Source: Bacillota bacterium (GTDB lineage: Bacteria > Bacillota > Clostridia > Lachnospirales > Lachnospiraceae). Taken from it: a stretch of 64,000 nt of DNA. The stretch covers positions 159,355 to 223,354 of the forward strand of contig JAKPAB010000200.1 of assembly GCA_029779695.1 (NCBI GenBank), given 5' to 3'. Every line of letters begins with the position of its first letter. Positions within the stretch are counted from its first letter, which is position 1. The notes under the pieces were generated by a model that searched no databases, had not been told where the DNA came from, and saw only the letters and a program-made list of their open reading frames with translations. This document shows positions 39,291 through 63,805 of the stretch, one piece after another. The position numbers and the translations under genes are program-made.

Positions 39291-40760
39291 TTAGAGTTCT
39301 TTTTCAAGTTTTTCGATTGCTTTTTGAACTCGCTTTATTGACTCATCCTTGCCCAGGATCTCCATAAGCTGCGTTGCTCCACCTGGAGTGCTTTCTTTTC
39401 CTGATACGGCCGTTCTAAGAGGCCACATTACATAACCATTTTTATATTCATGTTCAGTAGCAAAAGCTTTAAGCATATTAAAAAGTGCATCATTCGAGTA
39501 ATCATCCTGTGCTTCAAGATCAGGAAGCACTTCCTTTAAAACTATAAGAGAATTCTCAGCTGTTGTCTTCATCTTCTTATGCGTATACATAGCTATATCG
39601 TATTCCGGAACCTCTTTTAAGAAATCGATATGTTCTTCAATTTCCGGGAAAGTCTCGATTCTGGTCTGAACCAATTCAGCTACCTTTTTCTTGTTCATTC
39701 CATCCGGGATCACTTCAGAAATATATTTTTCTGCTTTCTCAAAGAAAGCATCAGGTGCCATTTTCTTAATATACTCACCATTCATCCACTTAAGCTTACC
39801 ATAGTCAAAAACAGCCGGTGACTTACCAATGCGGTGATAATCAAACGCTTTTACAAGTTCATCAAGAGTAAATATCTCCTGATTTCCCTCAGGACTCCAT
39901 CCTAAAAGTGCAACAAAGTTAACAATAGCATCTGTCAGGAATCCCTGATCTACTAGATCCTCAAATGATGAATGTCCACTTCTCTTTGAAAGTTTATGAT
40001 GTTCCTCATTCGTAATAAGAGGGCAATGAATATACTTAGGTACTTCCCATCCGAAAGCATCATATAATCTGTTATATTTGGGTGAGGATGAAAGATACTC
40101 ATTACCTCTTACAACATGGGTGATTCCCATAAGATGATCATCTACAACATTTGCAAAATTATATGTGGGATATCCGTCTGATTTGATCAGTATCATATCA
40201 TCAAGTTCTGAATTATCTACTGTAATATCACCATATATCTCATCATGAAAAGATGTTGTTCCCGTTCTTGGGTTATTCTGTCTGATTACATAAGGCATTC
40301 CACTAGATAGATTCTTCTCTACTTCTTCCTTGCTTAAGCTAAGACAATGCTTATCATAAACAGAAATCGTCTTGGTCTCACCATCTACTGTAATGGTCTG
40401 CCTTAAGCTATCAAGTCTCTCCTCATCGCAAAAACAATAATATGCCTCACCATCATCGATCAGTTTCTTGGCATACTCGAGATATAGTCCGTTTGCCTGT
40501 CTCTCAGACTGAACATAAGGTCCAACGCCTTTATCCTTATCAGGTCCTTCATCATGAATAAGTCCGGTTTCCTGAAGTGTTCTGTAAATGATATCTACAG
40601 CTCCTTCGACATAACGTTCCTGATCTGTATCTTCGATCCTCAAAATATAATCGCCATCCTCATGCTTAGCTATGAGATATGCGTAAAGTGCTGTTCTTAA
40701 ATTGCCGACGTGCATCCTTCCGGTAGGGCTGGGTGCAAATCTAGTTCTAACCTTTGCCAT
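39291..40760 (-). CDS. gltX: Glutamyl-tRNA synthetase
   Basis: [37 protein letters not shown]. Confidence 0.96.
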
Positions 40761-40762
40761 TT

Positions 40763-41983
40763 TTAATTTCTCCTTTGTCTCCCGGGTTCAGCTCCCGGAT
40801 TTCTTTTTTTATATTGATTCAGACCGCAGAGCCTGTCAACTGACTGTATTATTTCTATAATCTCAGGGACATAAAAATTATGTTCCTTCATTATCCTGTC
40901 TATTTCATCTCTTTCGAGCTTAACAGCATTCATATTTGAATCGATCTGATCCTTTATTTTTTGTCTTCTTTGGATCAATCGCTGCTTGACCTCAACCATT
41001 TCTTCTTGTCGAACAAGAGCAACCGCTTGAAATCTCCATACTTTAGGATCATATAGATTCTTTTTATTTAAGAATCCCATAACTCGATCGTTGCATACTT
41101 CAATATCTATATTATTTCTATTATATAGTTCCCTGTCCCTTTTCTCATTTTGATAATTATTCCAAAGATATTCAAGTTCTTTTGACGAATCAATGTCATA
41201 ATTTGAATAAACGTAATTGACAGCACTTGTTATATTAACATACTTCATTTTGATTGCATTCAACATTGGGATGATTCTATTTAGATATCTAAGGGAACTT
41301 CTGTTTTTTCTTTTTATATATGAATCTCTCATAAAAATAATTGCAAAAACAGTAGCTGCAAATAATAGAACGATTACCTGAAGCCATTGCAGATCAGTTC
41401 CTGTATAATACTGATATATAAATAATGTTCCGGAAATAAGAAGACAAGAAATTAAAAAAACAATCGAAACAATGCTCTGAAATCTAATTACCTTTTTTAA
41501 TGAATCCCTATCTATTTCTATAGCACTCTTTTCACCTTCGAGATGTCTCATATCCTTGTTCAATGAATCCTGATAAATTTCATTTTGGTTCAGCCTATCT
41601 ATTGTAGCAGGAATGCTATCCTCACTTTCCTCCATAAGCGTATAATTCTTTTCGGAAATTCTTGCTTCTCTATTTTCAAATCCTACTCTCGCCTTTGTAA
41701 GCTCTACCAATGTAGATGCCAATCCGGTAAGTTCGTCTTTTTCTTCTTGGGTAAGGTTTTCCAAAATCTCAATATCCTTGAGATAATTGTTTACTACCCT
41801 GTACTCTTTCTTTTCTGATTCGATTTCTTTAGTCGTGGAAACAATCTGTTCGCTTGAATCTAGGATATATCTCTCAAGCTTTTTAGGATCATTCCAACTA
41901 TCCAATTTGTCTATTTCCTCAAAGGTCTTATCAAAAGCTAAGTCCAGATTATTCTTTTTCTTCTTTTTAAATCCAAACATCAT
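40763..41983 (-). CDS. Uncharacterised coiled-coil protein with two TM segments
   Basis: 406 aa; TM hairpin [26 protein letters not shown]...[21 protein letters not shown] flanked by coiled coils; tightly linked to downstream-coordinate genes. Confidence 0.7.
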
Positions 41984-41996
41984 CTACGCCCTCTGA

Positions 41997-42812
41997 TTAC
42001 ATTCCACTATTTTTTTCATATTCTGACTTCCATATACCTGCAACAGCCATGATCGAAGATGGTCTTTCCTCACATGCTTTTTCAATTTTTTCACCAAAAG
42101 ATACAACATCATTCTGCGTCAGTGAGACATTGTAAGCCTTTTTAACATCGTCCACAATATCAGGTTTCACCAGAAATCTCTCAGTTTCCTCATCAAAAGC
42201 TGATTCATCTTCAGATACAAGACATGTAAGCAAAAGTGACCTTAGGGCAATATCTTTTCTTGTTTTTTCATATGATGTTCTAAAGCATACCAATGCCTCT
42301 TCAAAGAAAAACATCCTTGCATACGATACACCAAGATTGTAAAAAAGTTCTCCCTCTGTCACATTAGATATCTTTAATTTTTTTCGATCCTCTAAAATAG
42401 AAGTATATTCAATAATTGCGTCAGAATATCTACCTATTTTAAACATTCTGTCCCCACGGATCTTTCTGATCTCAGCCTCACTCTTGTTTTCCATAAGGGC
42501 AAGCTTATCCATGCTTATTTTTAACTCATGGTCAGTAAGATACCCGCTTTCACGAAGTACCCTTCCCAAAAAAATGTGAAAAGCTGTACCCTCAGCCAAC
42601 AGATCATCAAGCTCTCTCTTTAGAGATGGAAGTTTCAGTTCCTTTCCAACCCATTCGGTAAAATCTGTTGAAATTAAATCTTCATTCAACAATTCCGTAT
42701 GGTAAAACGCAATGAAACTAAGCTCCTCAAGAGAATATATATTAATTCCCACTGAATCAATATAATAAGGAGTTCCAGCAAGAGGCACCTTGCATAAGAT
42801 TAATTCTCCCAT
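41997..42812 (-). CDS. Uncharacterised protein with TPR-like segment
   Basis: 271 aa; KIGRYSDAIIEYTSILED...GELFYNLGVSYARMFFFEEALVCFRTSYEKT resembles TPR helices. Confidence 0.65.
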   Translation of the reverse strand: MGELILCKVPLAGTPYYIDSVGINIYSLEELSFIAFYHTELLNEDLISTDFTEWVGKELKLPSLKRELDDLLAEGTAFHIFLGRVLRESGYLTDHELKISMDKLALMENKSEAEIRKIRGDRMFKIGRYSDAIIEYTSILEDRKKLKISNVTEGELFYNLGVSYARMFFFEEALVCFRTSYEKTRKDIALRSLLLTCLVSEDESAFDEETERFLVKPDIVDDVKKAYNVSLTQNDVVSFGEKIEKACEERPSSIMAVAGIWKSEYEKNSGM

Positions 42813-44047
42813 TATTCCTCCTTTGGTAATTTAATGACATGAGTCCAGCTCTTGTCTGAGCTAGGAGCTATTTCTCCAAATCCCATGTCCTTGATAACAA
42901 TACTTACTTCACGATCAGAATTTGCAGATGCATTGATCCTTAACCTGGTGGTTCTATCATCTCTTTCAGGCAATCCCTCCAAGTAAAGCTTTTCAACATT
43001 TGCCTTACGACTGTCAGGCTTTTGTATCCAAAATTCCACCTCATGGCTTCCCATCAGAATGACCTCACAGTCTCCTTGACTCTGAAACCAGTTTTCACCA
43101 GCATTCATAAGAGAAATAAACTGCATTTTGCTTCCATCATCAATTTTTAAGGATACATTTAATTTTAACTCATTGTCCCCAATATATATGTAATTCCAGT
43201 TGGATCCATCTGACTTAGCATTTCCAGCAAAGCAAGCTCCTTTGGAATATAGATTCTTGCCTATAAATACCCTTCTATTCTGTAACAGGTATTCCATAGA
43301 CTTTTGCATCCACCCACCGTCAAAGCCATCTCCTACCAAATATACGCTTGACACCTGTCTGTTTTCTAACAGTCCTTTTAAGACATCCAAAAAAGCAATA
43401 TCTCTTCTTCTATCTACTAATTTCTCCGATCCTTCCGACAAGTGAACTGTTATTGGCTTGGTTCCTTTATCCAGACTCAAAAAACTATAATGAATATCCT
43501 GTCTGTCCGCATCTACCAATAATACATCATAGAGATATGTGCTAGGCTGCTGATTAAGTGCGTAATAATAAAAACATTCCATATGATCTAGCAATATCAA
43601 TCTATCTTGTGGTATCTTAAGTTTCCCAGTAATTACAGAGCAAAGTTCTGCAACCTCCAAAGACAGACTTGGAACAGTTATTACAAGCTTCTGCACAGCA
43701 GCCTTTGTGTATGGCTGCCCTGACATTTCAAAAATATTTTTAATAAAAAGAGCCAGAAGATCCCGAGCCGAGTATACAACTCCATCTAAGGTATAATCAT
43801 TATTTGCAATCGCATTCTCAAGAATATTCTCTGCTTCTCTTGCCTTGCCTTCAGATGCATACGTTTTCGCATTTTTACCATAAAACCACTGATCTAATCC
43901 ATTTCTCTTGGATATTGCAGTAGGAATCTGGTATTCCTCGCTGCCCATTACAGTACTGACACTTCCTGGTTCTCGCATTGAAGAACGGTAGAAGCTCACT
44001 ATTGTATTTTTATTTCCAAGATCAATACCATAAAAAATACCATCCAC
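42812..44047 (-). CDS. Hsp70/actin-fold protein (DUF5716-like)
   Basis: FYGIDLGNKNTIVSFYRSS nucleotide-binding phosphate-1-like motif; DnaK-like layout but divergent C-terminus. Overlaps the 271-aa gene. Confidence 0.7.
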   Translation of the reverse strand: MDGIFYGIDLGNKNTIVSFYRSSMREPGSVSTVMGSEEYQIPTAISKRNGLDQWFYGKNAKTYASEGKAREAENILENAIANNDYTLDGVVYSARDLLALFIKNIFEMSGQPYTKAAVQKLVITVPSLSLEVAELCSVITGKLKIPQDRLILLDHMECFYYYALNQQPSTYLYDVLLVDADRQDIHYSFLSLDKGTKPITVHLSEGSEKLVDRRRDIAFLDVLKGLLENRQVSSVYLVGDGFDGGWMQKSMEYLLQNRRVFIGKNLYSKGACFAGNAKSDGSNWNYIYIGDNELKLNVSLKIDDGSKMQFISLMNAGENWFQSQGDCEVILMGSHEVEFWIQKPDSRKANVEKLYLEGLPERDDRTTRLRINASANSDREVSIVIKDMGFGEIAPSSDKSWTHVIKLPKEE

Positions 44048-44069
44048 TTTTATCGCCGTTCCATTCTAT

Positions 44070-47000
44070 CTACAATATCCCAAAAAGTTCCTTGGTCATA
44101 ATATCCAACTTACCATATTCCTTAACTGTATTTTCAAGGTCATTCCATTCACTTAGCATTCCGTCATAGCACATATGGTTTAGCCTGTCATATCTGCTCT
44201 CTTTTTTCTTTTCGAAATAATTAGGACCAGATACAGTACCGGATGCCAATATTTCACCATTCTTTTTATCTATCCTAATATCATAATCGATCAAATCACC
44301 TGTAAAAAGTATAAGTGATTTTGTATATAGTCCCGGATAAACTTCCGGAAGGAATTCGGTTACATCATCAGCATTTTTTCTCTTTAATGTAATATAAAGA
44401 CGCTTTCCTGATTCATAATTATATTCAATATAGGTCTTATCATAGAGATGGTATTTCGTTTTTAGACCGCTTGGTGCATCCTTTAGAAAACCGAATCTCA
44501 TATTTCTATTCATATAATATCTAATAGATCTATCTAAGAGCAGCTTTTCTTCATCATTTAATTCCTGTTTGCCGCACAAATATCTCATAAGAGCGATTCT
44601 CATGCTCTCATTGACATCATCGTCGTAGGCATATGATCTAAGCAGTTCGCTATTAAATATCTGAGGAAGTGATGTTCCATTTAATAAATATTCCCTTGAC
44701 CAAAATGTAAGAACTGCCTCTCTTACCATTCTGTTAGGTTTTCTCGTCAGGAAGATCTTAAATGCCATTTCCGGGAAATGAGTATCATCTCCAGAATACA
44801 GAAGCTGTATTAATATTCTTCCGGCCAGATCTACATTAATAACAGATTCTTTTTCGGAATTTTCCAAAAGCTTTTCCATTATCTCAATAGATCCGGTAAA
44901 ATACTTACCCAGATATGCGATGGTCTGCTGAGAAGAAAAATTTTCCATCATAAGCTTAGCGCATGATGTAAGTAGAAAATCATTTGAATTAAATCCAAAT
45001 TTAACAATCATATAGTTAAATAGATTGAGCAAAAGACCCTTCCCGATATTCTGTCCATTATTGTGGATAAGATAATCATACGCTTCTTCAAAATGCTCTG
45101 TTCTAACACCATAGCTCACCACAATTGGAACAATATCTGATGGGATCATAAACTCTTCTCTTTTATTCCAAAAAAATGAAGCAAGAGTATCTTCTCTCCC
45201 ATTTCTTTTTAAAAGTTCATATATTCCTGAATACAATCCTTTTAGAAATGCTGGATCTAAATCATTATTACTTAATATTGACTCAATAAATGGGATTTCA
45301 TCCTCTGAGTAAATATAATTCTTTTCTTTTCTCGTAAGTTCATGTAAAAGTGAAGGGACCGAATGCTTGAATTTTTCAGAAACTTCATATTCATCATCAC
45401 TAAAATGAAGAATCGGATCCATTGCATAACATGATTCGTCAGCCGTAATCGTTCCATCTGCATCCACTAGGAAGATTTTATAATCCTTATCCACCACTGG
45501 TACATAAGCAATCCCTTTAATTATAGATGACACAACCGGTTTTCTATAACAATTCTGATATAAGACCACCTGTCTAGCTTCCGGTCTAAGAACTGCTACC
45601 CGTTGTATATACATAAACGGGCCAATCAATTCTGCGAAATCGTGATAATTATGGTTTTTAGATATAACTTCCTGATATATTACTGTCAGATTCTCATTAA
45701 TTCTCTCTCTTTGAAGCTGACTTAATGCAAACTCTTCCATACTCGGAACATACTCATTATATAACCTGGGTTTTTTCCACTTCATAGAGATCATATTAAC
45801 AAACAAATATGCTTTTCTATCTTCCTGGAGGTTGTTTGGATATCTAAAATATATCAACACCTGTTCAGGAATATCTGTAACACTGTCTAGTGGTAGCGAA
45901 TTAAGATAAGCTTCATATAATCCATTTACATTAAGCTCTTTATCGATTCCAGCTCTATACCAGATTGAAGCTTCTTCATCAAAGTGCTCATATCTGATCA
46001 AATATTCAATAATAGCAAGCAAGAGCTCATTTGAAGGGACAGCGTTATAGCCTGCCTCTGAAATAGTCAGCACACCTGTTTTAAATTCTTCCTCAGATCT
46101 AAGAAGTTCAGGGATCTGACCTGTAACATCCTTGGTCAGAATCTCTCGTTTTCTTGCGAAATTAAGTACAGCCATTGTAAAACTGTCCATTTTCTGGATA
46201 AGGTAAGGATTGCTTCTGAAAATAGAGTACGCCTCAGCAAGGAGAATCGGGCAATTATATCCGGATACGATCCACTGTCTGATATCCTTAAGCTTTCTTG
46301 CCGGATCATTAACATATTCATTTCTAAGGTATAGGAGAAAAACAAATATCCTATAATCCTCTGGATTCATTCTAAATATCTTTTCGATTTCGTCTGTCAG
46401 TTTTCCCTGATACTGTTCATCAGAATCGATAATAATGCATAGATATAAAAGATATGCCCATTCAAAAGAATTGTGATTGATGATATCTTCCTTCAGGTCT
46501 CTTATCAACCATAGGGCTTTCTGCCTTTCCTTAGACAATATCCTCGAATGACACAAAAGCAATCTGTGAAAAATAGGAAGTCTATATGCCAGATATTCTT
46601 CTTCATCAGATTTTTCAGTTTTAAATTCCCCAAATTTAAAATCTAACTTTTCAAAATCAGCCCTGTCATGAATCTTACCCTCATTGTCAAAATATACAGC
46701 TGGGTCAAAAGTTTTCTTTTTTGATTCTTCAGCCTTATATAATATTATTAAATTGTCATATAATTTCTTAGAGAAAACATGAAGTTCTAGTTTACCTACT
46801 CTGAAGTCAATTAATTCATCATATACTTCTGTTTTAAGATTTGATATTCGAAGGTTAAGCTTTCTTTCCGCATCACTATCATCTGGTAACGTAGCCTTGA
46901 CTTCTAGCTTTTTTGTAGAACTTCCATCATAGAAACTGATACATCCATAATTCTTTCCAGCATGCATCTTATCTTTTCTTATGAAAAAATCATATCCAAA

Positions 47001-47750
47001 TTCACGTCCGAGAAAATCTCCTTCATTTACCGTAGCCTTAGTGATTTCAATAAAAGGAGCATCGCACTTTATTGTAATAAGGAGTCTTCCCCATGTAGTT
47101 CTCTTAATATTAACTGAAGCCTTCTGATCTGCTTCAATTTCTTCAAATGAGATTTCATTTTTATCTAATTCAAAGTCGAGCTTTTCCTTAATACCAGCCT
47201 CTTCGAGGAAATTCTCAAGATTTGCGGCAGAATGGACAGCTTCATAGTATCCTTTATACAATAGTCTGAGATCCGGCTCTTGCTTAATCATAAATCCGGC
47301 AAATCCCTTGCTGTAGAAAACACTCATTCCCTCTGTAAAGTCAACTTCACAGAGTCTTGAAAAATCTTCAAGTGTCTTGATACTTCCTGCTGATGAATTA
47401 ACTGGAAGCCCCTCAAAGCAGAAATTAAATGGGACTTTTTTTCTTCCCATATTATATGTTATGTCAAAGAAACCATTAAATGTATCACCATTCTGGAATC
47501 CTTCAGATATAGTATGAAAAGGAACGGTTATGTCAGTTCCTTCAAATTCTGGTTTGTCACATATCACATAAGGATTGGAAGAATATACAAATCCTTTAAT
47601 GACAACCTTATTAAGAGACATGATTCTAAAGGCACCGTCTATATTCTGCCCTTCATATCCGGTTACACTTATAGAGGACGGTGCAATATCACATTTGGGT
47701 ATTTCATCGTCAAATCTGTCCTCAGATATTCGCCAGATTCTCCTTCTCAA
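44070..47750 (-). CDS. Giant uncharacterised protein (1226 aa, DUF5717-like)
   Basis: Single intact ORF with predicted beta-rich N-terminus and helical-repeat middle; 22 nt upstream of the Hsp70-like gene. DUF name from memory. Confidence 0.7.
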   Translation of the reverse strand: MRRRIWRISEDRFDDEIPKCDIAPSSISVTGYEGQNIDGAFRIMSLNKVVIKGFVYSSNPYVICDKPEFEGTDITVPFHTISEGFQNGDTFNGFFDITYNMGRKKVPFNFCFEGLPVNSSAGSIKTLEDFSRLCEVDFTEGMSVFYSKGFAGFMIKQEPDLRLLYKGYYEAVHSAANLENFLEEAGIKEKLDFELDKNEISFEEIEADQKASVNIKRTTWGRLLITIKCDAPFIEITKATVNEGDFLGREFGYDFFIRKDKMHAGKNYGCISFYDGSSTKKLEVKATLPDDSDAERKLNLRISNLKTEVYDELIDFRVGKLELHVFSKKLYDNLIILYKAEESKKKTFDPAVYFDNEGKIHDRADFEKLDFKFGEFKTEKSDEEEYLAYRLPIFHRLLLCHSRILSKERQKALWLIRDLKEDIINHNSFEWAYLLYLCIIIDSDEQYQGKLTDEIEKIFRMNPEDYRIFVFLLYLRNEYVNDPARKLKDIRQWIVSGYNCPILLAEAYSIFRSNPYLIQKMDSFTMAVLNFARKREILTKDVTGQIPELLRSEEEFKTGVLTISEAGYNAVPSNELLLAIIEYLIRYEHFDEEASIWYRAGIDKELNVNGLYEAYLNSLPLDSVTDIPEQVLIYFRYPNNLQEDRKAYLFVNMISMKWKKPRLYNEYVPSMEEFALSQLQRERINENLTVIYQEVISKNHNYHDFAELIGPFMYIQRVAVLRPEARQVVLYQNCYRKPVVSSIIKGIAYVPVVDKDYKIFLVDADGTITADESCYAMDPILHFSDDEYEVSEKFKHSVPSLLHELTRKEKNYIYSEDEIPFIESILSNNDLDPAFLKGLYSGIYELLKRNGREDTLASFFWNKREEFMIPSDIVPIVVSYGVRTEHFEEAYDYLIHNNGQNIGKGLLLNLFNYMIVKFGFNSNDFLLTSCAKLMMENFSSQQTIAYLGKYFTGSIEIMEKLLENSEKESVINVDLAGRILIQLLYSGDDTHFPEMAFKIFLTRKPNRMVREAVLTFWSREYLLNGTSLPQIFNSELLRSYAYDDDVNESMRIALMRYLCGKQELNDEEKLLLDRSIRYYMNRNMRFGFLKDAPSGLKTKYHLYDKTYIEYNYESGKRLYITLKRKNADDVTEFLPEVYPGLYTKSLILFTGDLIDYDIRIDKKNGEILASGTVSGPNYFEKKKESRYDRLNHMCYDGMLSEWNDLENTVKEYGKLDIMTKELFGIL

Positions 47751-51521: not shown

Positions 51522-52478
51522 CTAATTAAAATAAACCAGCTCATCCTCAGGTTTATCTGCTTCTTCTATGGAAACAGGATATAAAACAGGGCCTTTGCCC
51601 TTATATTCTCTTGAAAATTCGTTTTTAACCTTAGCCCTCAAATGTATCCAACTCTTATGACCGATTTTATCCGAATCCTTATACTTACATTTCAACCCTA
51701 GAAAAGTAATATCCTCCACACAGCATGTCATAGCAAAACGTCCAGGGACAATTGTTCCCGACTTAAGCTTACCATCTCCGTCCTTTGGATTATATACAAG
51801 TGCAAGGAAAGACACGATCTTGCCGTCATATTTCTTGGGATTATCCATTACATCCGTAAACCAAATTGCATAATCTGAATCACTGATCTCGATTTCATCC
51901 TTGGAAATATCAAAGGGAAGTTCATCAGGTCTGTCATCAATTGTTCCGTCTTCTCTCTCATAAGCGATCTGAGCAGGTCTATTAAATGCCTTGATTCCTG
52001 TTCTAAACTTGGCTCTAGGAGTATCATCGGTACATCTGTTAAAGATAACGACCTCTGCTTTTTTCAGCTGATTGACCATCATCTGTCTCATGTTAAGAAG
52101 ATACATGTCAAAAGTAGTCGCATCCACAGTAGCAAGAGATTGAACAATCATCCAATCCTTAGGAAGAAAACCTTCCTCATAAACCTTCTCAGGATCCCAT
52201 GTTCCATTATATTCAATAAAAACAGAATCAGGCAGATATTCCTTATCCAGTTTTTCTAGACTATCCAGATTAAAAGTATCTTCGCCAAGGTTTACGACCT
52301 TAGCATGTATCTTGTCCATCTCAGCTAAATCATATTCTTCATCTCCATCTTCAAGAGAAATAATTAGAATACTATCTAGATCCTCTGCGAATCCATTTTG
52401 GATCAATGTCTGTTGAATAAGAGATGTTTTACCACTGTCCATGAATCCTGTAAAAAAATATACGGGGACTTCTGCCAT
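51522..52478 (-). CDS. CobW/P47K-like GTPase with YcgQ/TIGR03943-like C-terminal domain
   Basis: P-loop GFMDSGKTSLIQQTL; C-terminal NPKKYDGKIVSFLALVYN...VPGRFAMTCCVEDITFLGLKCKY...WIHLRAKV resembles YcgQ-type C-termini. Confidence 0.7.
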   Translation of the reverse strand: MAEVPVYFFTGFMDSGKTSLIQQTLIQNGFAEDLDSILIISLEDGDEEYDLAEMDKIHAKVVNLGEDTFNLDSLEKLDKEYLPDSVFIEYNGTWDPEKVYEEGFLPKDWMIVQSLATVDATTFDMYLLNMRQMMVNQLKKAEVVIFNRCTDDTPRAKFRTGIKAFNRPAQIAYEREDGTIDDRPDELPFDISKDEIEISDSDYAIWFTDVMDNPKKYDGKIVSFLALVYNPKDGDGKLKSGTIVPGRFAMTCCVEDITFLGLKCKYKDSDKIGHKSWIHLRAKVKNEFSREYKGKGPVLYPVSIEEADKPEDELVYFN

Positions 52479-52544
52479 TTGCTATTCCTCCAAATTACTG
52501 TCTTTCATCGATTATCTGTAAAAATAAATCTAGTAGCTAATACT

Positions 52545-53657
52545 TTATAGTCCAAAAAGTTCAAAAAGTTCATGTTCCTTAAGATCAGTTCCAATTACTA
52601 CAATTCTTCCTGTTACATCCGGTGATCCTTCTCTTATCTCATATTCTCCTGCTACGAAGTCAAAATAAGCCCACTTTCCATCGGTTGTAGGGAGCATTCC
52701 CTTAGATCTAAGGATATTTCCATATTCATCAGTCTCAGAAAGAGTTTTAAGCGCTGATTCAATCCTTGCTTTTTCAAAAATATGAGCTGTCTCTTTTCCG
52801 ATACTGTCAAAAATATCATCAGCATGATGATGACCGTGATGATGATGTTCATGTTCTTCTTCATCATGGCGATGATTCTCATGTTCTTCTTCATCATGGT
52901 GATGATGTTCATGTTCTTCTTCGTCATGGTGATGATGTTCATGTTCTTTTTCGTCATGGTGATGATGTTCATGTTCTTCTTCGTCATGATGATGATGTTC
53001 GTGTTCTTTTTCATCAGCCTCATGTGCCTCAAGTGCTTTAATACTTACTTCAAGGTTCTCTTTACCTTCAATTGCAGATAATATCTTAGCGCCATCCAGC
53101 TTGACAAGAGATGTTGTTACGAGGAGTGCCTTGTCATTTTTTTCTTTAAGAATGGCTACAGTTTCATCCAATTTTTCCTGATTCATCTCTTCCGAACGGC
53201 TAAGGATTATTGTTGTAGCATACTCAATCTGATTATTAAAGAACTCGCCAAAAGCCTTCATCTGTTTCTTGGCTGTTTTAGCATTGACAACAGTCACAAG
53301 AGCATTGAGCTTTGTGTTGTCATTCTCTTTTGAAAAATCGATAACAGATGTCATTACATCTGAGAGTTTGCCAACCCCAGATGGTTCAATAATGATTCTG
53401 TCCGGATTGAATCTATCCATTACTTCTCTTAGATTCTTTGCAAAATCTCCAACCAAAGTACAGCATATACATCCGGAATTCATTTCTGTGATCTCAATAC
53501 CTGTATCCTTGAGAAATCCTCCATCAATTCCTACTTCTCCAAATTCATTCTCAATAAGTACAACCTTTTCACTTTTTAGAGATTCCTCTAAAAGTTTTTT
53601 TATCAGTGTAGTTTTTCCAGCTCCTAAGAATCCGGAAACTATATCAATTTTAGTCAC
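52545..53657 (-). CDS. CobW-family (COG0523) GTPase with His-rich metal-binding insert
   Basis: VSGFLGAGKTTLIKKLL, MNSGCICCTLVGDF (CxCC motif), His-rich repeat insert. Confidence 0.92.
   Translation of the reverse strand: MTKIDIVSGFLGAGKTTLIKKLLEESLKSEKVVLIENEFGEVGIDGGFLKDTGIEITEMNSGCICCTLVGDFAKNLREVMDRFNPDRIIIEPSGVGKLSDVMTSVIDFSKENDNTKLNALVTVVNAKTAKKQMKAFGEFFNNQIEYATTIILSRSEEMNQEKLDETVAILKEKNDKALLVTTSLVKLDGAKILSAIEGKENLEVSIKALEAHEADEKEHEHHHHDEEEHEHHHHDEKEHEHHHHDEEEHEHHHHDEEEHENHRHDEEEHEHHHHGHHHADDIFDSIGKETAHIFEKARIESALKTLSETDEYGNILRSKGMLPTTDGKWAYFDFVAGEYEIREGSPDVTGRIVVIGTDLKEHELFELFGL
52831..53010 (-). repeat. Six tandem 30-bp repeats encoding (E/D)HEHHHHDE(E/K)-type His-rich units
   Basis: 30-nt periodic unit such as tcgtcatggtgatgatgttcatgttcttct; encodes EHEHHHHDEE x6 with variants EHENHRHDEE and EHEHHHHGHH. 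Confidence 0.93.
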
Positions 53658-59548: not shown

Positions 59549-62500
59549 ATGTCTAAAAATGAACTTTATAAATTTGGAATCGATATTGGTTCCACTACTG
59601 TAAAGATTGCCGTACTTTCACCCGATAACAAATTAATATTTTCTGATTACGAGAGGCATTTTGCCAATATCAGAGAAACTCTTCATTCTCTTGTAAAAAA
59701 AGCATATGAAGTAACCGGGGAATGTATAGTAGCCCCTGTTATCACAGGCTCAGGCGGGTTAACTCTTGCGAAACATCTTGGAATAACTTTTGTTCAGGAA
59801 GTTATCGCTGTATCCACCGCTTTAACCAATTATGCACCACAGACAGATGTCGCCATTGAGCTCGGTGGAGAAGATGCCAAAATCATTTATTTTGAAAATG
59901 GTAATGTAGAACAGAGAATGAATGGAATCTGTGCCGGTGGTACAGGCTCTTTTATTGACCAGATGGCTTCTCTCCTGCAGACTGATGCTGAGGGTCTAAA
60001 TGTCTATGCCAAGGATTATAATGCTATATATACCATAGCTTCACGCTGTGGCGTTTTTGCAAAAACAGATATTCAGCCTCTTATAAATGAAGGTGCTTCT
60101 CACGAAGATCTGGCTGCATCTATTTTTCAAGCTGTCGTCAATCAAACAATAAGTGGACTTGCATGTGGCAAGCCTATCAAAGGTCATGTTGCCTTTCTAG
60201 GTGGCCCTCTTCACTTTTTGGATCAGTTAAGAGAAAGCTTTATCCGTACTCTTAAGCTAGATGAAGAACATACTATCATCCCTGAGAATTCTCACCTGTT
60301 TGCCGCTATTGGTTCAGCTCTTTCCTACAAAGAAAATGAGACCAAGACCATGAGTACTCTTATGGATGAGCTGTCCCACAATATAAAAATGGAATTTGAA
60401 GTTGCCAGACTCGATCCTCTTTTTAATAATGGAGAAGAATTTAAAACATTTTCAGAGAATCACAAAAAAAGTCATGTAGAGCAGAAAGACCTAACCCAGT
60501 ATCATGGGAAATGCTTTTTAGGAATCGATGCAGGAAGTACTACTACAAAACTTGCTCTAATAAGTGAAGACGGAGATCTTCTCTATTCATATTATTCAAG
60601 CAACAATGGAAGTCCTCTTAAAACAGCAGTGACTTCTATTAAAGAAATATATTCTAAGCTTCCGTCAGATACAAAAATCGTTCATTCATGTTCAACAGGA
60701 TATGGCGAAGCTCTTCTGAAATCTGCTTTAAAGCTTGAGGAAGGTGAGGTAGAAACTGTATCTCACTACTATGCTGCAAAATTCTTCAATCCAAACGTTG
60801 ATACAATTCTTGATATTGGCGGTCAGGATATGAAGTACATTAAGATCAAAGATCATGCTATAGACAGTGTTCAGCTCAATGAATCCTGTTCTTCCGGATG
60901 TGGCTCATTTATCGAGACTTTCGCTAAATCTCTTAATTTCTCCGTTCAGGATTTTGCAAAGGAAGCACTTTTCGCCGAGCATCCGATCGATCTTGGAACC
61001 AGATGTACTGTTTTCATGAATTCCAAGGTTAAACAGGCACAAAAAGAAGGCGCTTCTGTTGCCGATATTTCTGCAGGCCTAGCATACTCTGTTATAAAAA
61101 ATGCTCTTTTTAAGGTTATCAAACTGGCAGACCCCAAAGATCTCGGTGGAAATATCGTAGTCCAGGGTGGTACTTTCTATAACGACGCTATTCTCCGTGC
61201 TTTTGAAAAAATATCAGAGCGCGAGGTAACTCGTCCGGATATTGCCGGACTTATGGGTGCTTTTGGTGCAGCACTTATTGCCATGGAAAGATATAATTTT
61301 CAGCCTTATACTACTATGCTAAATATTGATGAGATTGATGATCTGACCTACGAGACCAAGCTTCAGAGATGTCAGCATTGTAATAACCACTGTCTCCTGA
61401 CCATCAACATGTTCAATGATGATCGACAGTTTATAACAGGAAATCGCTGTGAAAGAGGACTTGGTCTGGAAAAGAATAAGGATAACCTTCCTAATCTCTA
61501 TGAGTATAAGTTAAAAAGGGTATTCCAGTATAAACCACTTTTAAAAGATGAAGCTCCAAGAGGAAATGTTGGTATCCCAAGAGTACTTAATATATATGAG
61601 AATTACCCGTTTTGGGCAACATTTTTTAAGTCACTTGGTTTTAGAATCATCCTCTCTCCTCAGTCTAATCGTAAAGTATATGAGCTGGGTATTGAATCGA
61701 TCCCAAGTGAATCAGAATGTTATCCTGCCAAAATTGCTCATGGTCATGTACAGTGGCTGATCAATCATGATGTGGATTTTATTTTCTACCCTTGTATACC
61801 ATATGAGAGAGATGAATTTCCGGACGCCAATAACCACTACAACTGTCCTATCGTGACTTCTTATGCTGAAAATATTAAAAATAATATTGAAGAAATTGCC
61901 AATGGTGAAGTGCGTTTTATGAATCCTTTCGTTGCATTTACCAACGAAAAGATATTGAGCGATCAGCTGGTCAAGATATTCAAATTTGAATTCGATATTT
62001 CAGAAGATGAAGTCAAAAACGCTGCTCATTTAGGATGGGAAGAACAGGGCGCATTTAAAAAAGACATTGAAAATAAAGGCGAGGAAACTCTTCGATATCT
62101 ACAGGAAACCGGTAAGCACGGAATCGTACTTTGCGGACGTCCTTATCATATAGATCCTGAGATAAACCACGGAATACCTGACGTGATCAATTCTTATGGA
62201 ATGGCTGTTCTAACAGAGGATTCTATTTCACATTTAGGTGAATTAGAGAGGCCTCTTATCGTAATGGATCAGTGGATGTTCCATTCAAGAATGTATTCAG
62301 CTGCTAATTTTGTCAAGAAAACCGATTATCTTGACGTAATCCAGCTTAACTCCTTTGGATGCGGACTCGATGCTGTAACCACTGACTGTGTAAAAGATAT
62401 TTTAAATAACAGTGGAAAAATATATACATGTTTAAAAATTGATGAGGTCAATAACCTTGGCGCAGCAAGAATAAGGATAAGATCTCTTATTGCTGCCATT

Positions 62501-63805
62501 AATGTCAGAAAGCATAAAAAAGAGCAAGAAGAAATAGATATAGCTCCTGCTAATTATAATCGTGTAGAATTTACTGATGAGATGAGAAAAAACTATACTA
62601 TTCTTGCTCCTCAGATGTCTCCTATACACTTTGACCTTATTGCTCCCGCATTTAATGCCGCCGGTTATAATCTAATCGTTCCGGATATTCCTACGAGAGA
62701 ATGTATCGATCAGGGACTCCGCTATGTCAATAACGATGCTTGCTATCCTTCTCTTATGGTTGTCGGACAGCTTATGGCTGCTATTAAAAGTGGTGACTAC
62801 GATCTAAATAAAACTGCTCTTCTGATATCTCAGACAGGCGGTGGTTGCCGTGCTTCAAATTACATAGGATTTATACGTAGAGCACTCGATAAGGCAGGAT
62901 ATCCCAATGTGCCGGTTATATCGATAAGTGCACAGGGACTGGAGAAAAACTCCGGATTCAAGATTACTCTTTCTCTTCTTCAGCATGCTCTTTATGCATT
63001 GGAATTTGGAGACATTTTCTTACGATGTGTGCTTAGAACTAGACCATATGAAGCAGTTCCAGGTTCTACAGATATGCTTCATGAGAAGTGGAAAAAGAAA
63101 GTTATTGAATTTGTAACTCAAGAGCACATGCTTTCTCATACTAAGTATAAGAAGATGTGCCGTGATATTATCAAAGACTTTGACAATCTTCCAATTAATG
63201 AAAATCTTAAAAAGCCAAGAGTCGGTATTGTAGGCGAGATACTGGTTAAATTCCTACCGGCTGCCAATAACCATCTTGCCAAGCTTCTGGAATCAGAAGG
63301 TGCCGAGGCAGTTATTCCTGACCTTACAGATTTCCTCTTATATAGTTTTTACAACACAAACTTTAAAGAAGAAAATCTCGGAACCAGCAAGCGTGTAATG
63401 AGAAGATCAAATCTTGCCATTCATTTCTTTGAATGGTTGAGATCTGCCGCAAGAGTTGAATTCGACAAGAGTAAGCATTTTGAGGCTCCCTGCCATATAG
63501 ATAAGTTGGCAGAAATGGCAAAACCTATTGTATCTCTTGGTAATCAAACAGGTGAGGGATGGTTCCTTACCGGTGAGATGATGGAGCTCATGGATACAGG
63601 TTCTAACAATATCATCTGTATTCAGCCTTTCGGATGTCTTCCTAACCATATTGTAGGTAAGGGAGTTATCAAGAAAATAAGAAGTGAACATCCTGAGTCC
63701 AATATTGTAGCCATTGACTATGATCCCGGTGCCTCAGAAGTTAATCAGCTTAATCGTATCAAGATGATGCTTACCAATGCTGTCAAAAACATGAATCAGG
63801 AATAA
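59549..63805 (+). CDS. Acyl-CoA dehydratase activase-type protein (two BadF/BadG/HgdC-like ATPase domains plus DUF2229-like C-terminal region)
   Basis: FGIDIGSTTVKIAVL and FLGIDAGSTTTKLALI, GICAGGTGSFIDQMA, NESCSSGCGSFIETFA; long C-terminal Cys-containing region. Confidence 0.92.
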   Translation: MSKNELYKFGIDIGSTTVKIAVLSPDNKLIFSDYERHFANIRETLHSLVKKAYEVTGECIVAPVITGSGGLTLAKHLGITFVQEVIAVSTALTNYAPQTDVAIELGGEDAKIIYFENGNVEQRMNGICAGGTGSFIDQMASLLQTDAEGLNVYAKDYNAIYTIASRCGVFAKTDIQPLINEGASHEDLAASIFQAVVNQTISGLACGKPIKGHVAFLGGPLHFLDQLRESFIRTLKLDEEHTIIPENSHLFAAIGSALSYKENETKTMSTLMDELSHNIKMEFEVARLDPLFNNGEEFKTFSENHKKSHVEQKDLTQYHGKCFLGIDAGSTTTKLALISEDGDLLYSYYSSNNGSPLKTAVTSIKEIYSKLPSDTKIVHSCSTGYGEALLKSALKLEEGEVETVSHYYAAKFFNPNVDTILDIGGQDMKYIKIKDHAIDSVQLNESCSSGCGSFIETFAKSLNFSVQDFAKEALFAEHPIDLGTRCTVFMNSKVKQAQKEGASVADISAGLAYSVIKNALFKVIKLADPKDLGGNIVVQGGTFYNDAILRAFEKISEREVTRPDIAGLMGAFGAALIAMERYNFQPYTTMLNIDEIDDLTYETKLQRCQHCNNHCLLTINMFNDDRQFITGNRCERGLGLEKNKDNLPNLYEYKLKRVFQYKPLLKDEAPRGNVGIPRVLNIYENYPFWATFFKSLGFRIILSPQSNRKVYELGIESIPSESECYPAKIAHGHVQWLINHDVDFIFYPCIPYERDEFPDANNHYNCPIVTSYAENIKNNIEEIANGEVRFMNPFVAFTNEKILSDQLVKIFKFEFDISEDEVKNAAHLGWEEQGAFKKDIENKGEETLRYLQETGKHGIVLCGRPYHIDPEINHGIPDVINSYGMAVLTEDSISHLGELERPLIVMDQWMFHSRMYSAANFVKKTDYLDVIQLNSFGCGLDAVTTDCVKDILNNSGKIYTCLKIDEVNNLGAARIRIRSLIAAINVRKHKKEQEEIDIAPANYNRVEFTDEMRKNYTILAPQMSPIHFDLIAPAFNAAGYNLIVPDIPTRECIDQGLRYVNNDACYPSLMVVGQLMAAIKSGDYDLNKTALLISQTGGGCRASNYIGFIRRALDKAGYPNVPVISISAQGLEKNSGFKITLSLLQHALYALEFGDIFLRCVLRTRPYEAVPGSTDMLHEKWKKKVIEFVTQEHMLSHTKYKKMCRDIIKDFDNLPINENLKKPRVGIVGEILVKFLPAANNHLAKLLESEGAEAVIPDLTDFLLYSFYNTNFKEENLGTSKRVMRRSNLAIHFFEWLRSAARVEFDKSKHFEAPCHIDKLAEMAKPIVSLGNQTGEGWFLTGEMMELMDTGSNNIICIQPFGCLPNHIVGKGVIKKIRSEHPESNIVAIDYDPGASEVNQLNRIKMMLTNAVKNMNQE

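What the first reader, a model, noticed from the sequence alone, without database searches (positions are those of the whole stretch)
40763..47750. Uncharacterised four-gene cluster: giant 1226-aa protein, Hsp70/actin-fold ATPase, TPR-like protein, 2-TM coiled-coil membrane protein
Seen: four co-directional minus-strand genes spaced 22 nt or less (one overlapping start/stop): 44070-47750, 42812-44047, 41997-42812, 40763-41983, leading into gltX with a 2-nt gap. The 411-aa protein begins FYGIDLGNKNTIVSFY, typical of Hsp70/actin ATPases, but lacks a recognisable substrate-binding domain. The giant protein has no motif I recognise beyond a DUF5717-like resemblance. Inference: a dedicated chaperone- or cytoskeleton-like ATPase with a giant client/scaffold and a membrane anchor, plausibly envelope- or stress-related. 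This is the best candidate in the window for an undescribed system.
Basis: partly seen in the sequence, partly recalled or inferred. Interest (0 to 1): 0.68.

Follow-up and report, generated by a model that had tools for sequence, protein, structure and literature searches.

The report
Dead Hsp70 with giant scaffold operon
Almost every genus of the gut-bacterial family Lachnospiraceae carries, side by side, a giant scaffold-like protein, an Hsp70-type chaperone that has lost the residues needed to burn ATP, and a TPR adaptor, and relatives suggest this is the stripped-down remnant of an undescribed machine with four Hsp70s and its own exchange factor.

Summary
In detail: four minus-strand genes at the stated coordinates, gaps 22, -1 and 13 nt, then 2 nt to gltX. 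They encode DUF5717, DUF5716, a TPR protein and a two-TM coiled-coil protein. DUF5716 and DUF5717 occur, usually once and side by side, in about 97% of Lachnospiraceae genera (195 and 196 of 200). The trio with TPR was present in 40/40 loci read (DUF5716-TPR fused in three); the 2-TM gene in only 17/40. An AlphaFold model (pLDDT 91) matches whole Hsp70s, including SBD-beta. The catalytic lysine, glutamate and threonine are gone and subdomain IIB is missing: it looks like a lidless pseudo-Hsp70. In sister families of the order, DUF5717 (often split) heads an operon with three catalytically intact Hsp70s, one carrying a VWA domain, a GrpE-domain protein, the already degenerate DUF5716 ortholog, and the TPR gene. 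Lachnospiraceae apparently lost the active Hsp70s and kept the dead one under strong purifying selection. Best reading: a non-ATP-driven scaffold/docking complex, membrane-tethered in part of the family. The cellular role is untested. No paper found describes either version.

The parts
44070..47750 (-). DUF5717 giant protein, 1226 aa: two N-terminal beta-sandwich (ASH/hydin-like) domains, long TPR-like alpha-solenoid with a beta insertion, C-terminal beta-sandwich and helices
   Evidence: Pfam PF18984 1.4e-177 and PF18983 5.6e-60; AF2 model of residues 27-1226, pLDDT 85, pTM 0.55; Foldseek
47376..47693 (-). DUF5717 beta-sandwich domain 1 (about residues 20-125)
   Evidence: strands at model residues 2-98; ASH/hydin-type ciliary hits about 5e-6
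46890..47174 (-). DUF5717 beta-sandwich domain 2 (about residues 193-287)
   Evidence: strands at model residues 167-261
44229..44438 (-). DUF5717 C-terminal beta-sandwich (about residues 1105-1174)
   Evidence: within PF18983
42812..44047 (-). DUF5716: lidless pseudo-Hsp70, 411 aa, GTG start
   Evidence: PF18980 2.8e-95; AF2 pLDDT 90.7, pTM 0.84; Foldseek top 50 hits are Hsp70-type chains and complexes, best 4.5e-18; catalytic residues lost
43196..44047 (-). Hsp70 NBD-like region (residues 1-284) without subdomain IIB
   Evidence: segment between phosphate-2 and adenosine motifs is 56-74 aa versus 139 in DnaK
42815..43195 (-). SBD-beta-like domain (residues 285-411), no SBD-alpha lid
   Evidence: eight strands in the model; alignment to the DnaK '[12 protein letters not shown]' block; whole-chain Foldseek matches
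41997..42812 (-). TPR protein, 271 aa, start overlaps the DUF5716 stop (TAATG); fused to DUF5716 in three other genera
   Evidence: fusions in L072, L074, L088; outgroup ortholog TPR 3.5e-20
40763..41983 (-). Two-TM coiled-coil protein (TMCC), 406 aa; accessory, lineage-variable
   Evidence: hydropathy; 17/40 loci; absent elsewhere in most genomes lacking it
41327..41488 (-). the two predicted TM helices of TMCC (about residues 166-190 and 197-219)
   Evidence: KD19 peaks 2.67 and 2.53
39291..40760 (-). gltX, downstream neighbour in this sub-clade only; other genera have valS, purine genes or an ABC transporter there, so not part of the system

Best explanation
The cluster is the reduced, Lachnospiraceae form of a dedicated multi-Hsp70 machine of the order Lachnospirales. 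SHOWN by sequence or structure prediction: (a) DUF5716 is a divergent Hsp70 with an NBD and SBD-beta but no lid, no IIB lobe and no catalytic residues; (b) it is encoded next to the DUF5717 solenoid protein and the TPR protein almost throughout the family; (c) in sister families the same genes sit in one operon with three catalytically intact Hsp70s (one with a C-terminal VWA domain) and a GrpE-domain protein; (d) the dead Hsp70 was already degenerate there. INFERRED: DUF5716, DUF5717 and TPR form one complex. DUF5717 is the scaffold (solenoid plus ASH-like beta-sandwiches), and DUF5716 is a structural or adaptor subunit whose SBD-beta docks a peptide or partner segment constitutively, without an ATP cycle, much as Ssz1 serves in RAC. 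In the ancestral machine the active Hsp70s, with the dedicated GrpE, acted on or through this scaffold; Lachnospiraceae dropped the ATP-driven part and the IIB lobe of DUF5716 together, and kept the scaffold. Where TMCC is present it anchors the complex to the membrane.
For: Hsp70 identity: AF2 pLDDT 90.7, pTM 0.84; Foldseek top 50 all Hsp70-type, DnaK 4ani 4.5e-18, 7kru 1.1e-17 with TMq 0.54, Ssz1 6sr6 and Sse1 2qxl about 1e-15. Sequence bridge: outgroup protein L104:14735-16228 hits both PF18980 (1e-16) and PF00012 (5e-12); L094:3013-4497 hits PF18980 at 3e-74. Loss of catalysis: DnaK (6), Hsp70-1 (11), -3 (11) and full-length -4 (10) keep D8, T11, T12, K70, E171, D194, GGG, T199 and D201 in every sequence; DUF5716 (19) keeps D8 in 17 and D194 in 12 but K70, E171, T11, T199 and D201 in none; outgroup Hsp70-2 (11) keeps K70, T199 and D201 in none. 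IIB: 139 aa in DnaK, 122-148 in outgroup Hsp70-2, 56-74 in DUF5716. Operon in sister families read in 11 joined loci plus several partial ones. Orthology: DUF5716 groups with Hsp70-2 of G444 at 100/100 and holds the same place in the gene order. Reduction rather than gain: in the DnaK clade of the Hsp70 tree, full-operon genome G444 is sister to Lachnospiraceae (96/95) with full-operon G551, G475 and G481 outside. Family-wide retention. Coupling: TAATG overlap and fusions. Purifying selection.
Against: No biochemical or interaction data; no complex was modelled. DUF5716 keeps Asp8 in 17/19 and Asp194 in 12/19, so nucleotide binding without hydrolysis is not excluded. The SBD-beta fold does not prove peptide binding. 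Deep placement of Hsp70-2/DUF5716 rests on long branches, and Hsp70-2 is not one clade in the tree. The DUF5717 model has pTM 0.55, so its overall shape is unreliable; its ASH-like and TPR-like matches are fold-level (E 1e-4 to 1e-6). TMCC is missing from more than half of the loci read, so membrane tethering cannot be the universal function.
Confidence: 0.62

Rival explanations
1. DUF5716 is still a nucleotide-dependent Hsp70-like switch: it binds (or slowly hydrolyses) ATP with a re-invented active site, and DUF5717/TPR are its co-chaperones.
For: The phosphate-1 Asp is kept in 17/19 and the phosphate-2 Asp in 12/19 sequences, and the NBD core fold is confidently predicted.
Against: Lys70, Glu171, Thr11, Thr199 and the IIB lobe that closes over the nucleotide are gone in every ortholog checked; no obvious substitute set of invariant residues in the alignments A1 and A4.
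Confidence: 0.2
2. The unit works together with the cell's general DnaK/GrpE/DnaJ: the pseudo-Hsp70 and TPR protein act as a nucleotide-exchange factor or holdase partner of DnaK (Hsp110/Sse1-like).
For: Sse1 and Hsp110 are among the structural neighbours; every Lachnospiraceae genome checked keeps a DnaK-type gene; the larger operon has its own GrpE.
Against: From general knowledge, Hsp110 exchange activity needs an ATP-bound NBD with lobe II and lid helices; DUF5716 lacks IIB and the lid. No linkage to dnaK was seen.
Confidence: 0.12
3. It is a cytoskeleton-like (actin/MreB-type) polymer with a membrane anchor.
For: Actin-type fold; a two-TM coiled-coil partner in part of the family.
Against: The best structural matches are Hsp70s with SBD-beta, not actins or MreB; no MreB_Mbl match for the window protein.
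Confidence: 0.04
4. It is a defence or conflict system of the Hsp70/GrpE/vWA kind (Kaur et al. 2020, PMC7159879).
For: The larger operon shares HSP70, GrpE, TPR/beta-sandwich, vWA and membrane components with the GAP1-N2 HSP70 theme; weak PADLOC hits to candidate proteins PDC-M61B and PDC-M71B.
Against: GAP1-M is absent from 20/20 genomes, no J-domain was found in the operon, no convincing PADLOC hits in the window, and it is a near-universal gene set at family level, unlike patchy defence islands.
Confidence: 0.02

Closest known systems
Ssz1 of the eukaryotic ribosome-associated complex (RAC)
   Same: Hsp70 with NBD and SBD-beta, no SBD-alpha lid, no ATP hydrolysis, acts as a permanent partner (PMC7083937); structural neighbour at 1.6e-15
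   Different: Ssz1 still binds ATP and pairs with a J-protein on ribosomes. DUF5716 lacks subdomain IIB, has no J-domain partner in its operon and is paired with DUF5717/TPR
DnaK-GrpE chaperone system
   Same: The sister-family operon carries three catalytically intact DnaK-like Hsp70s and a GrpE-domain protein
   Different: Four Hsp70s in one operon, one dead and one fused to VWA, a GrpE domain on a 280-640 aa protein, no DnaJ, plus DUF5717 and TPR proteins; the Lachnospiraceae form has no active Hsp70 in the operon
GAP1-N2 GTPase systems, HSP70/GrpE theme (Kaur et al. 2020, PMC7159879)
   Same: HSP70 + GrpE + a second truncated HSP70 + beta-sandwich/TPR protein in one neighbourhood, with vWA and TM components in related themes
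   Different: No GAP1-M in 20 genomes; here the extra HSP70 keeps SBD-beta and loses catalysis; family-wide core genes
Pfam DUF5716 / DUF5717
   Same: The window proteins are members by gathering score
   Different: Pfam gives no function; the Hsp70 identity of DUF5716 and the larger operon are added here
ASH/hydin-type domains of ciliary central-apparatus proteins
   Same: N-terminal beta-sandwiches of DUF5717 match them by fold
   Different: Fold-level only; no sequence relationship tested or claimed

Membership tests
Hsp70 (PF00012) | Actin-type NBD fold joined to SBD-beta | tested here: met
   AF2 and Foldseek, whole-chain matches to two-domain Hsp70s
Hsp70 (PF00012) | Catalytic residues Lys70, Glu171, Thr199, GGG loop | tested here: not met
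   Lys70, Glu171 and Thr199 in 0 of 19 DUF5716 sequences; present in all DnaK, H1, H3 and full-length H4
Hsp70 (PF00012) | NBD subdomain IIB (GrpE-binding lobe) | tested here: not met
   56-74 aa versus 139 aa segment
Hsp70 (PF00012) | SBD-alpha lid | tested here: not met
   The chain ends after SBD-beta; 54 aa after the GIP motif versus about 187 in DnaK
Hsp70 (PF00012) | Pfam match above cut-off | tested here: not met
   The window protein hits only PF18980; linked to PF00012 through outgroup intermediates
Hsp70 (PF00012) | ATP-driven peptide binding and release | not testable with these tools
   needs biochemistry
DUF5716/DUF5717 (Pfam) | Profile match above the gathering score | tested here: met
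   319, 593 and 204 bits
MreB/bacterial actin | MreB_Mbl profile match and actin-only architecture | tested here: not met
   No MreB match for the window protein; SBD-beta present
GAP1-N2 GTPase conflict systems | GAP1 protein | tested here: not met
   PF20014 (GAP1-M) in 0/20 genomes, control positive in Corynebacterium
GAP1-N2 GTPase conflict systems | HSP70 + GrpE with DnaJ- or TPR-fused repeat protein | tested here: inconclusive
   HSP70, GrpE and TPR present in the sister-family operon, no DnaJ
Known anti-phage defence systems | PADLOC profile hits | tested here: not met
   Only weak partial hits: MTase 5e-4 and DndA 0.01
TPR proteins | Tetratricopeptide repeats | tested here: met
   Window protein 2.7e-5 (below the Pfam cut-off); ortholog L115:2804-3964 3.5e-20

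The most novel reading that the evidence does not exclude
An undescribed order-specific multi-Hsp70 machine (three active Hsp70s, one dead Hsp70, dedicated GrpE, VWA, ASH/TPR giant scaffold) evolved in Lachnospirales, and in Lachnospiraceae it was stripped of all ATP-driven parts while the dead Hsp70-scaffold core became a near-indispensable structural complex: an Hsp70-based assembly whose main job is no longer ATP-driven chaperoning.
Probability: 0.4. Interest if true: 0.8.

Novelty: new variant of a known kind. Interest (0 to 1): 0.64.

Why it matters
DUF5716 and DUF5717 are near-universal signature genes of one of the most abundant gut-bacterial families, yet no paper was found that describes them. 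Recognising DUF5716 as a pseudo-Hsp70, and finding its intact multi-Hsp70 relatives, gives a concrete hypothesis and a natural experiment: the same machine with and without its ATP engines. It would be a bacterial parallel to Ssz1-type Hsp70s and would make it testable why a dead chaperone is under purifying selection at least as strong as a tRNA synthetase gene.

Tried and rejected
DUF5717 outside Lachnospirales: class and phylum searches gave only partial hits at E 5e-5 to 3e-4; the one examined (G780, L139) carried no system gene and was dropped as chance, the others were not opened. An antisense 460-aa ORF at DUF5716 of L053 is an ORF-calling artefact (the domain is found there). gltX, valS, purine genes, the ABC amino-acid transporter, the divergent aminotransferase and malic enzyme were considered as partners and rejected: they vary between genera. 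No tRNA or Rfam feature in the window. Promoter scan no better than shuffles. J-domain search by HPD motif negative apart from two chance hits inside Hsp70-3. L107's 385-aa upstream gene was suspected to be a split DUF5717 N-part; it is SAM synthetase.
Full report
OBSERVATION. Recognisable ribosome-binding sites precede most starts, and the DUF5716 stop and TPR start overlap as TAATG. Pfam names ORF1 DUF5717_N + DUF5717 and ORF2 DUF5716_C; ORF3 has a sub-threshold TPR match; ORF4 has none above threshold. NCBIfam and PADLOC give nothing convincing. A literature search found no paper naming DUF5717 and one irrelevant mention of DUF5716.

DISTRIBUTION. In an even draw of 245 genomes of the class, DUF5716_C was found only in the nine genomes of the window's own family, all nine positive. 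Within the family (one genome per genus), 195/200 have DUF5716_C (162/165 of the good-quality genomes) and 196/200 have DUF5717_N, nearly always one copy. Named relatives include Pseudobutyrivibrio, Roseburia, Agathobacter and Butyrivibrio fibrisolvens 16/4; 572 candidate loci were confirmed, of which 80 were kept, and 65 of those 80 carry all four genes; most of the rest are on short contigs. The family is therefore Lachnospiraceae.

NEIGHBOURHOOD. In 40 loci from genomes of the family the order DUF5717-DUF5716-TPR is constant; in 39 of 40 measured loci (window included) the DUF5717-DUF5716 gap is 89 nt or less, and one locus has an inserted gene. In three genomes DUF5716 and TPR are one ORF of 685-723 aa, a strong sign of direct partnership. 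TMCC is present at 17 of 40 loci; of 23 genomes lacking it at the locus, 21 have no match elsewhere and two have only marginal ones. What lies beyond varies: valS, purine genes, an ABC amino-acid transporter, or gltX, so gltX is a neighbour, not a partner. Purifying selection between the window and its nearest genome is as strong as in gltX or stronger for the core three: dN/dS 0.06, 0.02, 0.03; TMCC 0.11; gltX 0.06.

WHAT DUF5716 IS. AF2 with 70 sequences gives a confident model (pLDDT 90.7, pTM 0.84): an actin-type core (about residues 1-284) followed by an eight-stranded beta-sandwich. Against the PDB the first 50 matches are all Hsp70-type chains or assemblies that contain them, and the alignments run over the length of two-domain Hsp70s. 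So the substrate-binding beta domain is there; the lid is not. Sequence support is independent: in sister families the ortholog matches both PF18980 and PF00012, and the C-terminal block 'LYLEGLPERDDRTTRLRINASANSDREVSIVIKDMGFGE' lines up with DnaK '[40 protein letters not shown]'.

WHY IT IS PROBABLY NOT AN ATPASE. Aligned to DnaK, none of 19 DUF5716 representatives keeps Lys70, Glu171, Thr11, Thr199 or Asp201, one keeps Thr12, and the glycines of the GGG loop survive only in scattered cases; Asp8 stays in 17/19 and Asp194 in 12/19. The stretch between the phosphate-2 and adenosine motifs, which contains subdomain IIB, is 56-74 aa instead of 139. That IIB is the lobe GrpE grips is established knowledge of the DnaK-GrpE complex, not tested here.

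THE LARGER MACHINE. A search of the order found DUF5717 in about 60 of 131 genomes outside the family, often as two genes of about 400 and 900 aa. Reading those loci showed one operon: DUF5717-N, DUF5717-solenoid, Hsp70-1 (557 aa; PF00012 1e-70), a GrpE-domain protein (280-640 aa; GrpE down to 3e-13, with one member giving no match), Hsp70-2 = DUF5716 ortholog (about 500 aa), Hsp70-3 (about 545 aa; 7e-59), Hsp70-4 with a C-terminal VWA domain (about 695 aa; PF00012 5e-92, VWA 2e-10, DTTGSMD-type metal site), TPR (about 387 aa), and in several genomes TMCC and valS. Hsp70-1, -3 and full-length -4 keep every catalytic residue checked; Hsp70-2 had already lost most of them. No J-domain protein was found in the operon. 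Lachnospiraceae genomes keep DnaK and in many genera a second DnaK-like gene, but the operon Hsp70s are missing from the locus; that the second gene is not Hsp70-1, -3 or -4 was judged by length and score, not by a tree.

DIRECTION OF CHANGE. In the tree DUF5716 is one clade and joins Hsp70-2 of G444 at 100/100; Hsp70-1, -3, -4 and DnaK are each one clade. In the DnaK part, G444 (full operon) is sister to the two Lachnospiraceae (96/95) with three other full-operon genomes outside. Loss of the active Hsp70s and GrpE on the Lachnospiraceae stem is the simplest reading; few genomes were used and some branches are long.

DUF5717. The model (pLDDT 85, pTM 0.55) has two N-terminal beta-sandwiches, a long helical solenoid with a beta insertion, and a C-terminal beta-sandwich. 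Foldseek matches a part of about 270-290 columns to ASH/hydin-type proteins of the ciliary central apparatus (about 5e-6) and longer stretches to TPR/PPR-type solenoids (about 3e-4). This is the anatomy of a scaffold; no sequence homology to ciliary proteins is claimed.

MECHANISM. Shown: fold, lost residues, gene association, conserved order, the larger operon. Inferred: a DUF5717-DUF5716-TPR complex in which the pseudo-Hsp70 is a constitutive docking subunit, as Ssz1 is in RAC: Ssz1 lacks the lid, does not hydrolyse ATP and works through its SBD-beta (PMC7083937). The loss of IIB together with the loss of the operon's GrpE fits this. Membrane tethering through TMCC can hold only for part of the family.

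RELATION TO KNOWN SYSTEMS. The nearest published parallel is the HSP70/GrpE theme of GAP1-N2 GTPase systems (PMC7159879), but GAP1-M was found in none of 20 genomes, so membership is not supported. Searches for papers on such an Hsp70 operon returned none or one general DnaK-paralog study that does not mention Clostridia or Lachnospiraceae; the library is not complete, so 'undescribed' means 'not found here'.

CONFIDENCE. Divergent Hsp70 identity about 0.95; loss of ATP hydrolysis about 0.85; common complex about 0.75; reduction from the larger machine about 0.8; scaffold/docking role as stated about 0.5.

Noticed in passing
L115:700-2790 (and orthologs in G517, G475, G551, G481, G462, G466, G529, G520, G558): Hsp70 fused to a C-terminal VWA domain with a nearly invariant DTTGSMD motif; an unusual architecture that deserves its own study.
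   Followed up: partly
L103:9828-11150 and orthologs upstream of DUF5717 in several sister families: About 440-aa membrane protein with a long coiled-coil tail directly upstream of the operon; weak matches to ZorA (2.9e-5) lie only in the tail part.
   Followed up: partly
G444: L119/L094, the Hsp70-4 and TPR genes: In the sister-family genome G444 Hsp70-4 and TPR appear broken into two ORFs each (198+494 aa and 123+195 aa); decay or assembly error was not resolved.
   Followed up: no
G272, G334, G341 (Lachnospiraceae): Good-quality genomes without a DUF5716_C match (G341 still has DUF5717); possible natural losses worth checking for phenotype.
   Followed up: no
L107 (G440): DUF5717 lacks its N-terminal beta-sandwich part (853 aa) and the upstream gene is SAM synthetase, so the N-terminal part is dispensable or elsewhere.
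   Followed up: partly
L081, between DUF5717 and DUF5716: One genus has an extra ~270-aa gene inserted inside the otherwise invariant core; not identified.
   Followed up: no
window 51522-53657: Two adjacent CobW/G3E GTPase genes, one with a DUF1980 C-terminal domain.
   Followed up: no
window 59549-63805: Large plus-strand ORF of 1418 aa, not examined.
   Followed up: no
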